A stretch of 64,000 nt of DNA from a virus. Under the pieces are notes generated by a model. The model had not been told where the DNA came from, did no database searches, and worked only from the letters and a program-made list of their open reading frames with translations. The stretch spans positions 1-64,000 of the IMG/VR virus record IMGVR_UViG_3300024261_002139; one strand, written 5' to 3'. Below, piece after piece: positions 839 through 44,278 of the stretch (position 1 is its first letter; every line of letters begins with the position of its first letter). The translations under genes and the position numbers were made by a program.

Positions 839-3049
839 ATGACGGCACCTGGCCATATGGCTCACCCATTTGACTGCCCTGATGTAGAGACAGGGCAAGA
901 TTTGGAAAGCATATTCAACTCAATCGCGAAATATCTGAAGAGCAACTCGGCAGCAGTCAAAATTGATGGTGTCAATGTTAGCTTCAAGCTTGTAGACACC
1001 CCTAACGGCAAACAATTTGCTGCTGATCGTGGAAGTCTCAAGCCGATTGATATTTCTGGGATAACCATAGACAAAGTTGCTGATAGGTTCCCAGAAGGAC
1101 ACGGGATGATAGACAAAATCTCCGTTGTCCTGGCTATCTTAAACAACTCCTTGCCGAGTGTAGAGAAAGAGTTAAAAGAGCTTGGAATGTGGGATGATTC
1201 AACCATATTTATGAACACAGAAGCTGTCGATTCCGGACAAACAAATGTTATGGAATACGAAGATAGCTTCCTGGCTATACACGGATTAAATAAGTTTTAT
1301 GAGAAGACACATTCTAGATCTGGCGTAACTCGCCCAGGTTCTGTAAGGCCGGAAGGAGTAACCTCTCCAAGCCACGAAATAGAGTACCCTGACAGTGCTA
1401 TGAAGAAGTTTATTAAGAAACTTAACCCAGCTGCAGAGAAATATAATATGAAAGTTGTTGGTTCAGTTCCAACAGAAACAGTGGAAGATATTAATTTTTC
1501 TAATACATTGTCATCCCGCATAAGAATCAACATCACAGACGAAGATTTTGAAGAAAAAAGTTTATCTTCTTGGCTTAAAGAAGTTGTGAATCCTCGTAAT
1601 GCATTTGTGAGTTTGTCTGATGGTAAAAAAGTAAAAGCTATAAGTAAACACATTTATACTGAACTTATAGCAAACCAAGTTCCTGTTGCTAGCATTTTAA
1701 AGAATGGCTCTGATGTAGCACATGCTATAAATGGAGCTATATTCTGGCATGCAACACGACAGTTAGGTAACGATGTACTGAACTCTGTTACTAGCGATCT
1801 TGGCAAAGGAAAAAATCAAGAAGGAATAGTTATAAGAGATAAACATATCTGCGGAGGAACCCCTGTAAAAGTAACAGGGGATTTTATTGTCAAAGGTATG
1901 GAATCTAAATTTAGCAAAAATGAGATAATCGTGAAAGAAGAGGAACAAGAAGAAAAGCCTGTTGACCCAACTGGCCCAACTGGAAAGATAACGGTTTTGT
2001 TTCCCGGAGGGTTTAAGCCTCCACATGCTGGACATCTTGAAATAGTGAAGAGGTATTTAGATGATCCTGATATTGGAGACATCAATATTTTTATTGGTCC
2101 GCACCGACGCCCAAAGATTGATTCTGGTGCTGAAGTAAGTGTAGGGGAAGAAGAGTCTCTTAAGATTTGGAATATATATTTAAATTCTCTTCCCGGATCT
2201 GAAAGGGTTAATTTAATTCAGATGTCAGCACACTCAGAGCTTGGCCGCACTCCTATGGAAGCAGCATACAAATGGGCAGAAACAAAATCTTCTCCCGGAG
2301 ATGTATATACTATGGCAGCTAGTAGCAAGAAGCAGAAAGGAAACGATCAACATGTAAGATCTTCTGCTTTTGAGAACTACTTTACTTCTGGAAGAGGAAA
2401 AGACACTGCTAGTGAAAGGGGATTCTCTGCCAGAGTCCACCCAATAGCTACTCGTAGTTTGAGATATACCGGAAGAGGAGACAGGCTAGATGGGCAACCA
2501 ATAAGTTCAACTACTATGAGGAGAGATGCACAGAACGGAGACTTGGGTATATTTTCTACTAACATACCAAATGAGGTCATTGGCCAAACAGATGAAATTA
2601 TGAAAATTTTAAATATTCAAATAGTGGAGAACTTCACAAAAAAAAAGTTATATTTATTGGTTAAGGAAGTGATGGCTGATTATGGTGGTGGTGAAATGGT
2701 AGCTAGTGTTGGCGGCTCTAATGCCGGAACTTCAGCCCAAGCACTGGCACACCATAAGGTCCATCATGCATCTGCAGCACCTGATTATAGGATTGCAGAT
2801 TCTAATGAAAACTGCAATAATTGCAAACATCTAAATAAAAAGAAAACAAAAGATTTCTCAGAAGAAGATTTTTGTAAATATTATAATTTCAAAACAACAG
2901 AAAGATATGTATGTGATGACTGGGAAGCAATAAAAGAATTTAGTGCTATGGGAGCAGTCGGAGGCGGAGCTGTTGCTGGTAGTGCTGTCCCAACAAATAC
3001 TGATAAAAAGAAGAAAGGTAAAAAGAAAAAATTAACAATATTTAGATAG
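839..3049 (+). CDS. Multidomain nucleotidyltransferase: ligase-like KxDG domain + HxGH domain + Cys motif
   Basis: A 736-residue protein with AGGAGA 6-7 bases before ATG 839. Three parts are visible. (1) Residues about 20-360 resemble the covalent nucleotidyltransferase (DNA/RNA ligase) fold: K41 in KIDGVNVSFKL matches motif I (KxDG), EGIVIRD near residue 328 matches motif IV, and KVTGDFIVKGMESKF resembles motif V. (2) Residues about 380-600 form a cytidylyltransferase/NMNAT-like domain with the HxGH signature in GGFKPPHAGH (about residue 396) and an ISSTTMRR motif near 554, the usual second nucleotide-binding motif. (3) The C-terminal region carries CNNCKH...FCKYY...YVCDDWE, a four-cysteine metal or Fe-S type cluster seen in several phage proteins. 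The substrate is unknown. NAD or nucleotide-cap metabolism, or nucleic-acid end modification, would be consistent (inference). No frameshift is seen, so this is a true single-chain fusion. Confidence 0.7.
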   Translation: MTAPGHMAHPFDCPDVETGQDLESIFNSIAKYLKSNSAAVKIDGVNVSFKLVDTPNGKQFAADRGSLKPIDISGITIDKVADRFPEGHGMIDKISVVLAILNNSLPSVEKELKELGMWDDSTIFMNTEAVDSGQTNVMEYEDSFLAIHGLNKFYEKTHSRSGVTRPGSVRPEGVTSPSHEIEYPDSAMKKFIKKLNPAAEKYNMKVVGSVPTETVEDINFSNTLSSRIRINITDEDFEEKSLSSWLKEVVNPRNAFVSLSDGKKVKAISKHIYTELIANQVPVASILKNGSDVAHAINGAIFWHATRQLGNDVLNSVTSDLGKGKNQEGIVIRDKHICGGTPVKVTGDFIVKGMESKFSKNEIIVKEEEQEEKPVDPTGPTGKITVLFPGGFKPPHAGHLEIVKRYLDDPDIGDINIFIGPHRRPKIDSGAEVSVGEEESLKIWNIYLNSLPGSERVNLIQMSAHSELGRTPMEAAYKWAETKSSPGDVYTMAASSKKQKGNDQHVRSSAFENYFTSGRGKDTASERGFSARVHPIATRSLRYTGRGDRLDGQPISSTTMRRDAQNGDLGIFSTNIPNEVIGQTDEIMKILNIQIVENFTKKKLYLLVKEVMADYGGGEMVASVGGSNAGTSAQALAHHKVHHASAAPDYRIADSNENCNNCKHLNKKKTKDFSEEDFCKYYNFKTTERYVCDDWEAIKEFSAMGAVGGGAVAGSAVPTNTDKKKKGKKKKLTIFR

Positions 3050-3090: not shown

Positions 3091-3870
3091 ATGATCACAG
3101 ATAGACACAGTTTTGCTCAAGAGATGTTATTGAGAGAGCAGATCAGAAATAATATTAGAGAACTAATAACAGAAGAAAAAAGTAAAATTCTCAAAGAAGA
3201 GAAGAAATTAAGATCTATTATTCGCAGCCTGTTAACAGAAGAACAATCTACTTCAGTTAACTTTCTAGAAAATTTGTTTTCTGATACAAATTTAGTATCT
3301 ACTTTACAAGACGGTTATGAATCTTTGGGAAAAGAAGAAGAAAAGAAATCTTATAAAGCACACGTATTAAGTTCTTTGATAAAAACCTTAGATATTTATG
3401 ATACGAATATTAATGCAGCTGGTGGTGAAGAAGCTTCATTAGAAGAAGAAGTAGGAATAGAACTAGAAGATGATCCAGATAGACTATTAGGCCAAAAAGA
3501 AGAGAAAGTCGATGATTCAGCTATGACTGGATTTACTATAGCAGGAGAAAACGAAACAGGTAGAAATCTAGCTCTAGGTGTTCCTGGTGAAAGAGATAAA
3601 GGTGTAGTTGATATTGTTTGGCCAAGTATAAGAAATTGGTATAGTAAAATTGGTTCAGATGACGATGAAGGAAGAGAAGTATTTAAAGATTATTTATTAA
3701 TAAATATTAAAAAGTACTTTGAACTATGGGATTCGGAATCTGATTCTGGGATAGAAGAACCGGAAGTAGAAGAACCAGAGGATATGGTTGAGCCTGGAAT
3801 GGAAGCTTCAGAAGATCCCATGGGTGAGCCAATAGAAGATTCGGATGAATTTAGTGATTTGAATCTATAG
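3091..3870 (+). CDS. Acidic helical protein of unknown function
   Basis: A 259-residue protein beginning MITDRHSFAQEM, with an AGGG-type ribosome site just upstream. The N-terminus holds two similar charged helices (EQIRNNIRELITEEK and KLRSIIRSLLTEEQ, about residues 17-52) that look like a duplicated segment. The middle is soluble with conserved-looking residues (GFTIAGENETGRNLA). The last 45 residues are extremely acidic (EEPEVEEPEDMVEPGMEASE). Acidic tails and paired helices occur in phage scaffolding and capsid-associated proteins, but I do not recognise a specific family. It is separated from the upstream gene by 41 bases holding a candidate late element. Confidence 0.55.
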   Translation: MITDRHSFAQEMLLREQIRNNIRELITEEKSKILKEEKKLRSIIRSLLTEEQSTSVNFLENLFSDTNLVSTLQDGYESLGKEEEKKSYKAHVLSSLIKTLDIYDTNINAAGGEEASLEEEVGIELEDDPDRLLGQKEEKVDDSAMTGFTIAGENETGRNLALGVPGERDKGVVDIVWPSIRNWYSKIGSDDDEGREVFKDYLLINIKKYFELWDSESDSGIEEPEVEEPEDMVEPGMEASEDPMGEPIEDSDEFSDLNL

Positions 3871-3941: not shown

Positions 3942-4295
3942 ATGTCCTGGAATAAAAAGAGAAAAATCTCAGGAAAGAATACAAACTATTCTATCTTGAA
4001 CTCCCTTAAAGAAAAAAAATTATCAAACGATGAATTTGAAGTTATGATCAATTCTATATCATTAGAAGATCTAATAGCTATGAAATTAGAATTAGCAACT
4101 AAAGCAGCTGGTGGTTATTTGTATGGCTTGCCTATTTGGAAGTCTACAAAGAATGTGGTTAGAGATGCATTATTAAAATATGCTCTATCAGCGACAAGAA
4201 CCAAAAAAGAAGCTTCTAGATTTTTAGGTATATCTATACTAGAATTAAATCTTTTCCTTAAGGAATACAAAACAGAAAAGTATTTTGAAGAATAG
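3942..4295 (+). CDS. Small Fis-like helix-turn-helix protein
   Basis: A 117-residue basic protein (MSWNKKRKISGKN...). The C-terminal third, LLKYALSATRTKKEASRFLG followed by ISILELNLFLKEY (about residues 78-110), has the layout of the Fis/NtrC C-terminal helix-turn-helix: a helix, a T-x-x-x-A-A/S turn, then a recognition helix. The N-terminus is lysine-rich, and a glycine pair (AAGGYLYGLP) occurs mid-protein. It therefore probably binds DNA as a transcription or nucleoid-type regulator (inference). The ribosome site is weak (GAGTG). It is the last gene before the non-coding interval with the tmRNA, so it could regulate that region, but nothing in the sequence shows this directly. Confidence 0.55.
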   Translation: MSWNKKRKISGKNTNYSILNSLKEKKLSNDEFEVMINSISLEDLIAMKLELATKAAGGYLYGLPIWKSTKNVVRDALLKYALSATRTKKEASRFLGISILELNLFLKEYKTEKYFEE

Positions 4296-4374: not shown

Positions 4375-4502
4375 GGGTTGTAAGAATGTGGCAATAATTT
4401 ATTAATAAAAAATAAAGTACCAGCAATGGTCGGCCTCCATGTCTCTAACGAGGTTTATAATTGAAGAGAGACTAGTATGGTTGTGATTCTAGAAAACAAC
4501 CC
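4375..4502 (+). other. Structured non-coding leader of unknown function
   Basis: No gene is seen here. GGGTTGT (4375-4381) is complementary to ACAACCC (4496-4502) and could close a domain of about 128 bases. Inside it, GTCTCT (4441-4446) pairs with AGAGAC (4467-4472). GGTTGT (4479-4484) can pair locally with ACAACC (4496-4501), so the 3' arm has two mutually exclusive partners. A T6 run follows near 4521-4526, before the tmRNA. This could be a small RNA, a processed tmRNA leader or chance pairing. No tRNA cloverleaf is found. Confidence 0.35.
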
Positions 4503-4533
4503 GCCTTTTAAATCATTCGTTTTTTAACTTTTC

Positions 4534-4839
4534 GGGGGTGAGTAGGTTCGATTGCGTAAATAAAAAATTTGTTCAAAGATGTGTAGACAACACAGTAAAA
4601 AACATCTAAAATATAAAAGCCAACGATAATGTTGAATTTGTTCCTGCAGCCATAGCGGCTTAGGTTACTGGGTGCTAACAACCTGGAAACAGAAAGTTAG
4701 AAAAGAGTTTACTGAAACTTTAAATCAGGTGGTGTGGGAATAGAATGGTTTGTTAAGTGCCTAACTTAGCTAACTTTGTAAGTAAACAAATTTTTGATCT
4801 TTGTGTAAGACGCGGGTGCAACTCCCGCCACCTCCACCA
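4534..4839 (+). ncRNA. ssrA: Transfer-messenger RNA (tmRNA), one-piece, phage-encoded
   Basis: tmRNA rescues stalled ribosomes and adds a degradation tag. The evidence is structural and complete. The acceptor stem GGGGGTG (4534-4540) pairs with CACCTCC (4829-4835), giving seven pairs with the G3-U wobble required by alanyl-tRNA synthetase. Discriminator A4836 and an encoded CCA (4837-4839) follow. The T arm is GCGGG/CCCGC (4812-4816 with 4824-4828) around a seven-base loop TGCAACT. The 5' AGTAGGTTCGATTGCG matches the tmRNA D-loop region. Helix 2 is long: 4552-4560 pairs with 4800-4808 (some G-U), and AAAAATTTGTT (4563-4573) with AACAAATTTTT (4785-4795). The tag frame is at 4619-4663, and its 3' part forms a hairpin AGCC-ATAGC-GGCT (4648-4660) like helix 5. 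At about 306 bases it is shorter than the roughly 360 bases of E. coli tmRNA. The T loop has G instead of U at the usual pseudouridine position. No smpB gene is in the window. Confidence 0.95.
4619..4663 (+). other. tmRNA tag-peptide reading frame (ANDNVEFVPAAIAA-stop)
   Basis: Starting at resume codon GCC (4619-4621), the frame reads A-N-D-N-V-E-F-V-P-A-A-I-A-A and stops at TAG (4661-4663). With the alanine carried by the tmRNA, the full tag is A-ANDNVEFVPAAIAA. The bases U(-5)A(-4) before the resume codon match the E. coli pattern. The AND start and hydrophobic AA end are tag-like, but the end is IAA instead of the common LAA. Confidence 0.9.
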
Positions 4840-4864: not shown

Positions 4865-5260
4865 ATGAAGCACAGAAAACCAACTTGGAATCAAATTTGG
4901 ATGTTGTTGGCAGAGAGTATAGCCGATAAATCTTCAGATGCTCACAAGAAAAATGGTTCTGTGATCGTGACAGGAGACAATGCCAGTGTTTTAGGCATCG
5001 GATACAATAAAACAAAAAAAGATAGCACAAATAAATCAAGAGAGGGTGACTTCGACCATGCCGTAGCAATGGTATTGTTGAATTTTAATTTTGGAGACCT
5101 TAGGGAAAAGAAAATGTATATAACAGAAGCACCCTGTGAACAATGTGCTAACATGATTGTTGACACTGATATAAAAACAGTGATATATCGCAATGATTAT
5201 GGAGATAACACAGGATTAAATATTCTAAAAAGTTCAGGAATAAACTTAGTTCGAGCTTAG
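4865..5260 (+). CDS. Cytidine/dCMP deaminase-fold protein lacking the catalytic Glu
   Basis: A 131-residue protein starting MKHRKPTWNQIW. GAAAGG (4851-4856) sits 8 bases before ATG 4865. The frame stays open upstream but only through the tmRNA 3' end, so the longer version is not a gene. The fold is visible: KNGSVIV (residues 29-35) as in dCMP deaminases, H65 in DHAVAM, then PCEQCA with zinc cysteines C91 and C94, and KTVIYRNDY. In active members the histidine is followed by A-E, with Glu as the proton shuttle. Here it is H-A-V (V67). The zinc ligands therefore look intact while the catalytic acid is missing. It could be a non-catalytic or regulatory homologue, or use another acid such as nearby E60. 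It lies directly downstream of the tmRNA, probably on the same transcript. Confidence 0.65.
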   Translation: MKHRKPTWNQIWMLLAESIADKSSDAHKKNGSVIVTGDNASVLGIGYNKTKKDSTNKSREGDFDHAVAMVLLNFNFGDLREKKMYITEAPCEQCANMIVDTDIKTVIYRNDYGDNTGLNILKSSGINLVRA

Positions 5261-41328: not shown

Positions 41329-41392
41329 AGAAAATAGTGCGATTTTGAAGTAATTGCATACACCATATCACAAAAAACGAGGGCAAGCAATA

Positions 41393-44278
41393 ATGGCAAT
41401 AGATCAAACACAGAAATTCAGATTTGTTTCACCTGGTATCTTCATCGATGAAATTGACAGATCGCAATTACCAAAAATACCCGGAGCAATCGGCCCAGTA
41501 GTCATTGGCAGATCCGAAAGAGGCCCCGGCTTGACACCAGTTAAGCTGAACTCTTACTTGGATTTTGTGAACATATTCGGAAACCCACAAAGGGGAGTTG
41601 GTAGCAACGATGTCTGGAGAAACGGAAACAACACTGCTCCTACATATGGTGCTTATGCTGCACAAGCATATTTGAAGAACTCTGCACCCCTGACTTTCGT
41701 TCGTTTGCTCGGCGCTGAATCCCCCGATGCCTTTGCGAACGAAGGTGAGGCTGGATGGAAAACTAAAAACTTGGCCTTTGAATCAGACTCGCCTAGCACC
41801 AATGGTGGTGCTTATGGTTTGTTCTTAATCCCCTCTGGTACTTTTGCAGCAGACACCGCAGTTGATTGTCCTCTGGCAGCCGTCTTTTATGTTGGCGAAG
41901 GCAAGATGAGATTGGTTGGTAAAACCCCTGCCGGAAGAATTGTCTCTTCGTCTGCCGGCCAAGATGGTTGCGGAACCTTTGTCCGGACGATAGGTAGTGA
42001 CTTTGAGCTTGAAGCAACTATCTTTAAAGCTGATGGTACTGACATAGAAAAGAGAACGACTTTTAACTTTAATGAAAACTCTCACAAGTATATCCGAAGA
42101 GTGTTCAACACGAACCCTACTCTTACAAACTCGGACATAACACCATCAGACGGACTCACGAACTATTGGCTTGGGGAAACTTTTGACAATTTCATCAAGA
42201 ACAAGATCAATGCTAATCTAGATGCTGGCGAAGCATATGGTTGCTTAGTGCCGCTTCAACAAGGCTCATCAACTGCCTATGCCGATCAGAGACAGCCTGC
42301 TCAGGCAGCTGCTTCCGGTTGGGTAATCTCTCAAGATCTCAATACGGTTACTGCTTCTTTTGATCCTTCTGATATGACGAAGTTGTTCAAGTTCCATGCT
42401 CTTGGCGAAGGGGCTGGCGAATGGGAACAGAACAACATTAAGGTTTCCATTACAGATATAAAAACCTCAAACAACCCATTGGTTAACGAGTATGGAAGCT
42501 TTACTGTCTTAGTCAGGCAATTGGAAGATGATAAAGATGCATCTCCCGTCATACTAGAACAATATACTGAATGTGGCCTTAATCCCGCTGCAAATAACTA
42601 TGTTGCCAATAAGATTGGTGACAAGTCTTTGGAATGGAGTGACTCTGAAAGAAGATATACCACTCTTGGAACTTATCCCAACAGCTCAAGATATATTAGG
42701 GTAGAGATGAATCCAGATATTGAAGTAGGTGGAGTTGATCCTAGGACTCTCCCCTTCGGTGCCTTTGGGCCTCTCAAGTTGAATACTGTACCGGTCGCTT
42801 CTGGTTCTAGTGTTGAGAGCGGAACTAGCTTTCTACAAGGTTCAGGAAGCTCTCCTGACTTTCCGACGACTGCGACAGGAAGTGGGTTTGACATAGATAT
42901 TAGTTTCTCTGGCTCTTTCCTTTTTCCGGAAATCCCACTTGTTGCCACGGCATCAGAAACTGGGGTTCCTGATTTTAAGGATGCTTTCTATGGCATTGAT
43001 GTAACTAAATCTGGTAGCTATTCTTTTGATGAGGGGTACAGAGATTATGTCAAAGTAAAACCAAAAACAGTAGATAATCATGCTGACGATGGAAGCACTG
43101 TCTATCAATGGGTGTTTACTCTTGATGATGTCATTGCCACAACTGGTTCTTCAGGCGACATAGACGATGCTTATTATCAAGCAAACTCCAGGCTCTCAGG
43201 AACTTCCATCAGTGCTAGTGGTTCTCTGAACTATGAGAGCACCCTTGATGCCGGCGTCACACAGTTTACTATTCCACTGTTCGGTGGTTCTGACGGGCTA
43301 GACCTAACAGAACAAGAGCCGTTCAGAAACTCTGGAACGAAGAGCAAAACAGAGAAGACAAGCTATGCTTACTACTCAATCAAGAGAGCGATTGATTCTG
43401 TCTCGGATCCGGAAGTGATTGAGATGAATATAGCTACTGTGCCTGGTGTCACTAATACGGGTCTAACAGACCACCTTATGAACACTTGCGAATCCAGGGC
43501 AGATGCTCTTGCGATTATTGACCCGGAAGGTGGCTACACTCCGGCATCGGAAGCAGCAACTACGGAAGCAGTAAGATCACGAACTGGTGTTGACGAAGTT
43601 GTATCAAACATACGGGATAGAGGATTAAACACTAGCTATGGCTGTGCTTACTATCCTTGGGTACAGATCAGAGATAGAACAACTAATTTTCCTCTCAATG
43701 TGCCACCTAGTGTTGTTGCCCTGGGCACCATGGCTAGTTCACAAGAGAGTACTGCGGTTTGGTTCGCTCCTGCTGGATTTAACCGAGGCGGATTGTCCGA
43801 AGGCTCCGCTGGTATCGCGGTGACAGATGTTAAAGATAGACTTACTGCCAAGAAGCGAGACAAGTTGTATGAACACAATATTAATCCGATTGCCTCATTC
43901 CCGTCAGAGGGTATTGTGATTTTCGGACAAAAAACTCTTCAGTCTACTCCTTCTGCTCTTGACAGAATTAATGTTAGAAGATTGTTGATTTTCTTGAAGA
44001 AGGGTATTTCCAATATCGCTTCTAGAATTTTGTTTGACCAGAATGTCCAAGTGACTTGGGATAGGTTCACGAGCCAGGTTAATCCATATTTAGATTCTGT
44101 TAAATCCGGACTAGGGTTGACTGACTATAAAGTCCTTCTTGATGAAACCACAACGACACCTGATTTGATTGATAGAAACATCTTGTATGCCAAGATTTTC
44201 CTGAAGCCAGCCCGTGCAATTGAGTTCATTGCTTTGGATTTCATAGTCACGAGAACCGGTGCTTCTTTCGACGATTAA
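41393..44278 (+). CDS. 18: Tail sheath protein gp18-like
   Basis: 961 residues from ATG 41393 (GAGGG 9 bases upstream). An in-frame TTG at 41354 is less likely. N-terminus FRFVSPGIFIDEIDRSQLPK, then GPVVIGRSERGPGLTPVKL and FVNIFGNPQRG, is the classic sheath opening. The C-terminal region (RINVRRLLIFLKKGISNIAS, FDQNVQVTWDRFTSQVN, PARAIEFIALDFIVTRTGAS) is the conserved contractile core. At 961 residues it is much longer than T4 gp18 (659), with the extra length in the middle, implying additional outward-facing domains on the sheath. Confidence 0.95.
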   Translation: MAIDQTQKFRFVSPGIFIDEIDRSQLPKIPGAIGPVVIGRSERGPGLTPVKLNSYLDFVNIFGNPQRGVGSNDVWRNGNNTAPTYGAYAAQAYLKNSAPLTFVRLLGAESPDAFANEGEAGWKTKNLAFESDSPSTNGGAYGLFLIPSGTFAADTAVDCPLAAVFYVGEGKMRLVGKTPAGRIVSSSAGQDGCGTFVRTIGSDFELEATIFKADGTDIEKRTTFNFNENSHKYIRRVFNTNPTLTNSDITPSDGLTNYWLGETFDNFIKNKINANLDAGEAYGCLVPLQQGSSTAYADQRQPAQAAASGWVISQDLNTVTASFDPSDMTKLFKFHALGEGAGEWEQNNIKVSITDIKTSNNPLVNEYGSFTVLVRQLEDDKDASPVILEQYTECGLNPAANNYVANKIGDKSLEWSDSERRYTTLGTYPNSSRYIRVEMNPDIEVGGVDPRTLPFGAFGPLKLNTVPVASGSSVESGTSFLQGSGSSPDFPTTATGSGFDIDISFSGSFLFPEIPLVATASETGVPDFKDAFYGIDVTKSGSYSFDEGYRDYVKVKPKTVDNHADDGSTVYQWVFTLDDVIATTGSSGDIDDAYYQANSRLSGTSISASGSLNYESTLDAGVTQFTIPLFGGSDGLDLTEQEPFRNSGTKSKTEKTSYAYYSIKRAIDSVSDPEVIEMNIATVPGVTNTGLTDHLMNTCESRADALAIIDPEGGYTPASEAATTEAVRSRTGVDEVVSNIRDRGLNTSYGCAYYPWVQIRDRTTNFPLNVPPSVVALGTMASSQESTAVWFAPAGFNRGGLSEGSAGIAVTDVKDRLTAKKRDKLYEHNINPIASFPSEGIVIFGQKTLQSTPSALDRINVRRLLIFLKKGISNIASRILFDQNVQVTWDRFTSQVNPYLDSVKSGLGLTDYKVLLDETTTTPDLIDRNILYAKIFLKPARAIEFIALDFIVTRTGASFDD

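What the first reader, a model, noticed from the sequence alone, without database searches (positions are those of the whole stretch)
4534..4839. Complete tmRNA gene encoded by the phage
Acceptor stem with the G3-U pair, encoded CCA, T arm, long helix 2 and an in-frame tag ending at a stop are all present, so this is a functional-looking ssrA gene inside a virion-gene region. Phage-encoded tmRNAs have been reported only rarely to my knowledge. It would let the phage rescue ribosomes stalled on degraded host or phage mRNA and mark products with its own tag.
Basis: partly seen in the sequence, partly recalled or inferred. Interest (0 to 1): 0.9.

Follow-up and report, generated by a model that had tools for sequence, protein, structure and literature searches.

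The report
Phage-encoded tmRNA with tag-less sister forms
This phage carries a complete copy of the bacterial ribosome-rescue RNA (tmRNA), which is a known if uncommon phage trait; its phage relatives in some cases keep only the tRNA-like half of that RNA at the same place, and over a hundred other viral contigs carry such stripped-down copies, which would be expected to interfere with rescue rather than perform it.

Summary
Window 4534-4839 (+) is a full-length one-piece tmRNA: ARAGORN calls it with tag ANDNVEFVPAAIAA, and Rfam RF00023 matches it end to end (79.3 bits, E 4e-29). The nearest relative, L002, keeps the gene in place with a compensatory base-pair change and a conserved tag end. 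"Rare" is out of date: 402 of 18,146 phage genomes had tmRNA in 2021. The gene lies beside PhoH and deaminase genes, not among the tail genes. No SmpB gene was found, so it would have to work through host SmpB.

The surprise is in the relatives. Right after the same small gene, sister myophages carry either a full tmRNA or an 82-83-nt RNA that keeps only the tRNA-like domain (TLD), without tag. It is about 91% identical within its clade where flanks are 66-68% and PhoH fourfold sites 43%. Pattern scans of IMG/VR found TLD-only RNAs in at least 126 contigs (~99 distinct), with strongly covarying helices. One of the patterns in 257 Gb of GTDB genomes gave one real hit, a viral contig in a Prochlorococcus single-cell genome. 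The only phage precedent I found is mycobacteriophage DS6A, reported to inhibit tmRNA. Function here is untested.

The parts
4534..4839 (+). ssrA, full-length one-piece tmRNA
   Evidence: ARAGORN; Rfam RF00023, 79.3 bits, E 4.1e-29, model 1-374
4534..4540 (+). acceptor stem, 5' strand GGGGGTG; G3 pairs with U70
   Evidence: sequence; paired in the MFE fold
4552..4578 (+). helix 2, 5' strand (GCGTAAAT, AAAAATTTGTT, CAAAG)
   Evidence: MFE fold pairs most of it with 4774-4808
4619..4663 (+). tag reading frame: resume codon GCC, ANDNVEFVPAAIAA, stop TAG
   Evidence: ARAGORN. L002 has ANDNVELVPTAIAA: 4 changes in 45 nt, two silent
4675..4700 (+). stem of the pseudoknot after the tag: CTAAC (4675-4679) with GTTAG (4696-4700)
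   Evidence: L002 has CTAGC/GCTAG, a compensatory change; GCAGC/GCTGC and others at the same place in further relatives
4774..4808 (+). helix 2, 3' strand
   Evidence: MFE fold
4812..4828 (+). T arm GCGGG-TGCAACT-CCCGC; the T loop is atypical
   Evidence: sequence; identical in L002
4829..4839 (+). acceptor 3' strand CACCTCC, A73 and encoded CCA end
   Evidence: sequence; Rfam alignment
3942..4295 (+). 117-aa ORF that precedes ssrA (full or TLD-only) in relatives
   Evidence: tblastn synteny in the PhoH-relative loci
3091..3870 (+). 259-aa ORF, next conserved gene upstream of the 117-aa ORF
   Evidence: tblastn synteny
4417..4533 (+). intergenic leader with a stretch nearly unchanged in L002; possible interleaved stems CCTC/GAGG and GTCTCT/AGAGAC; unidentified
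   Evidence: pairwise alignment; no Rfam family at E<=5; fold z-score not significant
4865..5260 (+). deaminase-like protein downstream of ssrA
   Evidence: PF00383 E 5.3e-13; phrog_174 dCMP deaminase

Best explanation
Window 4534-4839 is a phage ssrA gene whose product most likely works as ordinary tmRNA. It would be alanylated by host AlaRS, bound by host SmpB and EF-Tu, enter ribosomes stalled on cut or degraded mRNA, and append ANDNVEFVPAAIAA. The product would be released at the TAG stop with a hydrophobic -IAA end of the kind that host proteases read as a degradation tag. Shown by sequence: gene, folds, tag, conservation, synteny. Inferred: expression, charging, SmpB use, tagging. In sister phages the same locus holds the TLD alone. 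Such an RNA keeps the AlaRS and elbow features but cannot give a resume codon, so I infer that it acts as a decoy or modulator of host trans-translation.
For:: full tmRNA anatomy, tag and stop, compensatory change in L002; tmRNA follows the 117-aa ORF in the window, L002, L003, L004, L009, L021 and L017/G016; tags of the full-length relatives keep an -AA end (ANDADYDLALAA, ANDNVAFDYALAA, ANDNVELNYAQAA, ANNNYYFEESRLAA and others); no SmpB in G000 or 40 other records, while 10 bacterial controls ring. TLD-only forms: L010; 32 sequences, 96.8% of cells paired against 75.8% shuffled; covariation 0.524 against 0.135; single starred clade with L004; 126 of 130 pattern matches pass; acceptor pair 5 is GC 47, AT 36, CG 13; selection.
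Against: No expression or biochemistry. Rfam score 79 against 96-129 for most full-length relatives; the T loop lost the usual U55 and pseudoknot 1 is weak, so reduced function is possible. Host unknown, so host SmpB, proteases and the host tag cannot be compared. The record is a linear fragment.
Confidence: 0.83

Rival explanations
1. The window copy is on its way to loss or acts mainly as a competitor: it binds SmpB and AlaRS but tags poorly, like the TLD-only forms of its sisters.
For: Lower model score (79.3 bits), atypical T loop TGCAACT, weak pseudoknot 1; sister phages keep only the TLD.
Against: Tag frame, stop, helix 2 and the pseudoknot stem after the tag are kept between the window and L002, with a compensatory change and two silent changes among the four in the tag.
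Confidence: 0.12
2. The gene is a host fragment: passenger DNA from imprecise excision or assembly of a bacterial contig into the phage record.
For: ssrA is a known integration site for phages and islands (PMC9004378, PMC3146451).
Against: Same gene order in several independent phage contigs, phage genes on both sides, no integrase seen among the proteins scanned.
Confidence: 0.02
3. For the TLD-only sisters: not decoys but tag-less rescue RNAs that let ribosomes receive one alanine and be freed by other factors, sparing phage proteins from proteolysis.
For: G3.U70 and A73 are kept in essentially all validated sequences, so charging seems to matter. A pure decoy need not be charged: PMC4131195 says inhibition occurs whether or not the RNA can be charged.
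Against: No known release step without a resume codon. The DS6A form was reported to inhibit the endogenous tmRNA in E. coli (PMC11915505).
Confidence: 0.25

Closest known systems
One-piece bacterial tmRNA (Rfam RF00023)
   Same: full-length model match, acceptor with G3.U70, T arm, helix 2, tag frame with stop, CCA
   Different: carried by a phage, shorter mRNA-like domain (306 nt in all), T loop TGCAACT, tag ends AIAA
Phage-encoded tmRNAs (mycobacteriophages Bxz1, Cali, Wildcat; Bacillus phage G; 402 phage genomes in 2021; huge phages)
   Same: a complete ssrA gene in a phage genome
   Different: another phage lineage with no nucleotide match for the region in the phage collection; not the permuted two-piece type of Melnitz and pelagiphages
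TLD-only tmRNA of mycobacteriophage DS6A and of Mallomonadaceae plastids
   Same: described as little more than the tRNA-like domain without a tag; comparable to the 82-83-nt RNAs of the sister phages
   Different: the window gene itself is full length; the TLD-only RNAs found here are in at least 126 viral contigs of many sequence types, where the literature read here names one phage. DS6A itself was not in the searched collection, so it could not be compared directly

Membership tests
tmRNA (ssrA) | covariance-model match over the whole model above the curated cut-off | tested here: met
   79.3 bits against 47, positions 1-374
tmRNA (ssrA) | AlaRS identity: G3.U70 in the acceptor, discriminator A73, CCA end | tested here: met
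   GGGGGTG/CACCTCC + ACCA
tmRNA (ssrA) | tRNA-like domain without anticodon arm, T arm, long helix 2 | tested here: met
   MFE fold gives the 7-bp acceptor, 5-bp T stem and two-part helix 2; the T loop is atypical
tmRNA (ssrA) | tag reading frame with resume codon and stop, hydrophobic -AA end | tested here: met
   ANDNVEFVPAAIAA*; end kept in L002
tmRNA (ssrA) | pseudoknots around the tag | tested here: inconclusive
   stem of the pseudoknot after the tag supported by a compensatory change; pseudoknot 1 weak in the window copy
tmRNA (ssrA) | partner SmpB | tested here: inconclusive
   none in the 66.9-kb fragment or related records; the host would have to supply it and is unknown
tmRNA (ssrA) | alanylation and tagging activity | not testable with these tools
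   needs experiment
TLD-only (CDS-less) tmRNA | no mRNA-like domain | tested here: not met
   the window copy is full length; sister phages L010, L012 and seven other mini-bearing records meet it

The most novel reading that the evidence does not exclude
The ssrA locus of this myophage group switches between a full tmRNA and a TLD-only RNA, and TLD-only tmRNAs are a large, largely unrecognised, essentially phage-borne RNA family that antagonises or reroutes host trans-translation during infection. The existence, structure and conservation of the family are well supported here; the antagonist function is inferred from the published DS6A result.
Probability: 0.5. Interest if true: 0.78.

Novelty: new member of a known kind. 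Interest (0 to 1): 0.52.

Why it matters
A phage tmRNA alone adds one more case to a known set. What makes this locus useful is the natural comparison: related phages carry, in one syntenic place, either the complete rescue RNA or only its tRNA-like half. That makes the open question of why phages carry tmRNA at all (help rescue, or sabotage it) testable by swapping two natural alleles. If the TLD-only RNAs are trans-translation antagonists, then interference with ribosome rescue is a widespread phage strategy carried out by an RNA of about 80 nt. ARAGORN mostly does not call these RNAs (it missed them in L010, L163, L159 and others), and in the papers read here they are described from a single phage.

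Tried and rejected
Host fragment or misassembly: rejected by conserved synteny. Permuted two-piece tmRNA: rejected for the window (RF04321 only 31 bits, below its cut-off) and for the TLD-only RNAs (5' acceptor strand comes before the 3' strand). S-CAM3, PaMx31 and DLP_6, which surfaced as blast neighbours, read as permuted tmRNAs in ARAGORN and are not minis; Kumao has an annotated full-length tmRNA. Chance origin of the minis: the first pattern in GTDB gave 33 hits of which 32 have poor T stems (1-4 of 5, mostly 2), against 5/5 in all 32 distinct viral ones. MAFFT alignment A3 misregistered the acceptor, so its RNAalifold consensus was not used for helices other than the T stem; pairs were counted on sequences anchored at invariant blocks instead. 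Regulatory RNA upstream of ssrA: no Rfam match and no significant fold; left open. Promoter and terminator scan: no excess over shuffles. DS6A could not be fetched. Named isolates with a mini: four short blast searches found none; a blast of 80 nt is weak evidence of absence. Host of the window phage: not determined.

Full report
Observation. ARAGORN finds exactly one RNA gene in the 64-kb window, a tmRNA at 4534-4839 on the + strand with tag ANDNVEFVPAAIAA. Rfam RF00023 matches the same 306 bases from the first to the last model position with 79.3 bits, E 4.1e-29, and nothing else in Rfam reaches its threshold in the window. The anatomy can be read directly: acceptor GGGGGTG/CACCTCC with the G3.U70 pair, A73 and an encoded CCA, T arm GCGGG-TGCAACT-CCCGC, a long helix 2 which the minimum-energy fold returns unprompted, and a tag frame at 4619-4663 ending in TAG.

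Surroundings. The window is 64.0 of 66.9 kb of a linear IMG/VR record from a contractile-tailed phage: tail sheath, tail tube, baseplate wedge and hub proteins. The tmRNA is not among those genes. It lies between a 117-aa ORF without a family (3942-4295) and a deaminase-like protein (4865-5260, PF00383), followed by a trypsin-like protease and PhoH. No SmpB was found in this record or in 40 related or mini-bearing records, while ten bacterial controls ring, so the RNA would depend on the host's SmpB.

Conservation. The nearest relative, L002 (PhoH 90% identical), has the gene in the same place with tag ANDNVELVPTAIAA. The two tmRNAs are 92% identical, the 3' TLD 35 of 35, and the 26 nt just downstream 35%. 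The stem after the tag changes from CTAAC/GTTAG to CTAGC/GCTAG, a compensatory change, and two of four differences in the tag are silent. So the mRNA-like part appears to be under constraint too. Odd points are the T loop TGCAACT, shared with L002 but not with other relatives, and a weak pseudoknot 1.

Known or not. Phage tmRNAs are established: PMC4131195 lists ten phages, PMC9004378 counts 402 of 18,146 genomes in 2021, and PMC7162821 reports tmRNA and SmpB in huge phages. The window gene is a new member of a known kind, in a lineage without a nucleotide match in the phage collection.

Where the evidence led. Relatives found through PhoH keep the order 259-aa ORF, 117-aa ORF, ssrA, then PhoH (the 259-aa ORF was not found in L003). 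In L003, L004, L009, L021 and G016 the RNA after the 117-aa ORF is a full tmRNA. In L010 and L012 Rfam reports tmRNA over only 83 nt: in L010 GGGGGTGGTTTGGGAATTCGACTGAGATTAAATCCTGCAATGGCAGTCTCAGGACCACGGTTCGACTCCGTGCACCTCCACCA. It has the acceptor, the tmRNA-type D loop, a short helix 2 closed by a hairpin, the T arm and CCA, but no mRNA-like domain. Seven more records with 57-61% identical PhoH carry the same kind of RNA and no full tmRNA. In a PhoH tree all nine mini-bearing phages fall in one fully supported clade with L004 (full), while the window, L002, L003, L009, L021 and L017, all full, lie outside it. A tree of three proteins puts L004 among the minis with moderate support. The simplest history is one change from full to TLD-only and perhaps one later regain; the exact order is not settled. 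Other relatives (L007, L013) have the 117-aa ORF and no tmRNA found, and L006 and L014 have a full tmRNA elsewhere in the genome.

The TLD-only RNA is not decay. Within the clade it is 91% identical on average, flanks of equal length 66-68%, and fourfold degenerate sites of PhoH 43%.

How far it extends. A first pattern found 52 IMG/VR contigs with 32 distinct sequences. All have a perfect 5-bp T stem, which the pattern did not require. On their alignment 96.8% of cells are paired (75.8% after shuffling); all six helix-2 pairs and four of five T-stem pairs show changes on both sides; covariation 0.524 against 0.135 shuffled and at most 0.086 when slid. The same pattern in 257 Gb of GTDB genomes gave 33 hits of which one is real; that one is a contig in the Prochlorococcus single-cell genome AG-409-P03 of the same length (130,604 bases) and with the same RNA as viral contig L163. 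Over both sets 126 of 130 readable matches have T stem 5/5 and acceptor at least 6/7, about 99 distinct; the four others are plainly chance. Acceptor pair 5 occurs as GC 47, AT 36 and CG 13, although its 3' partner was free in the second pattern, while G3.U70 and A73 stay fixed in nearly all. A covariance model separates minis (52-88 bits) from tRNAs and full tmRNAs (at most about 40). Of 40 records tested (the window record and 39 mini-bearing ones), 18 encode a phage terminase, and the clade sisters G011 and G059 share the 970-1,000-aa tail sheath with the window.

Mechanism. For the window gene: ordinary trans-translation with host SmpB, AlaRS and EF-Tu, adding a tag with an -IAA end (inferred from anatomy; about 0.83 that it is a working tmRNA). 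For the TLD-only sisters: the features for charging and for the tRNA-like elbow are kept, the resume codon is gone. The papers read here name one such phage RNA, from DS6A, reported to inhibit the endogenous tmRNA in E. coli (PMC11915505), perhaps by titrating SmpB (PMC4131195). I therefore favour a decoy or modulator. The strict retention of G3.U70 leaves room for tag-less rescue.

Limits.

Noticed in passing
L010:1676-1758 (+), L012:5057-5139 (+); further L222-L228: TLD-only tmRNAs of 82-83 nt at the same syntenic place where the window has a full tmRNA; strongly conserved, no mRNA-like domain.
   Followed up: yes
L134-L185 and L235-L335: At least 126 viral contigs (about 99 distinct sequences) with TLD-only tmRNA; essentially absent from GTDB genomes by the first pattern. 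A 69-nt subtype (L134 and 11 identical copies, plus L142) has T loop CGCGATA and an adjacent terminator-like hairpin.
   Followed up: partly
L153:6093-6154 (-), L159:13302-13377 (-), L163:1621-1716 (+), L166:5916-6012 (-), L152:5224-5296 (+): Pistol ribozymes (Rfam RF02679) within about 0.1-2.7 kb of the TLD-only RNA in what look like marine cyanophage contigs.
   Followed up: no
window 4417-4533: Leader between the 117-aa ORF and ssrA holds a stretch nearly unchanged in L002, with possible interleaved stems CCTC/GAGG and GTCTCT/AGAGAC; no Rfam match, no significant fold energy.
   Followed up: partly
window 839-3049: 736-aa protein with a weak cytidylyltransferase match (GGFKPPHAGH) in its C-terminal half and a KIDG motif near the N-terminus that resembles the KxDG motif of nucleic-acid ligases (resemblance from memory, untested); conserved upstream of ssrA in relatives.
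   Followed up: no
L002:5068-5900: In L002 a patatin-like-looking ORF (GTSGG motif, untested) and a small ORF sit between ssrA and the deaminase gene; they are missing from the window, so the 3' flank of ssrA is a gain/loss site.
   Followed up: no
window 41354-44278: Tail sheath protein of 974 aa, about twice the length of the sheath family profile (phrog_23, 496 positions), with relatives of similar length in many viral contigs.
   Followed up: no
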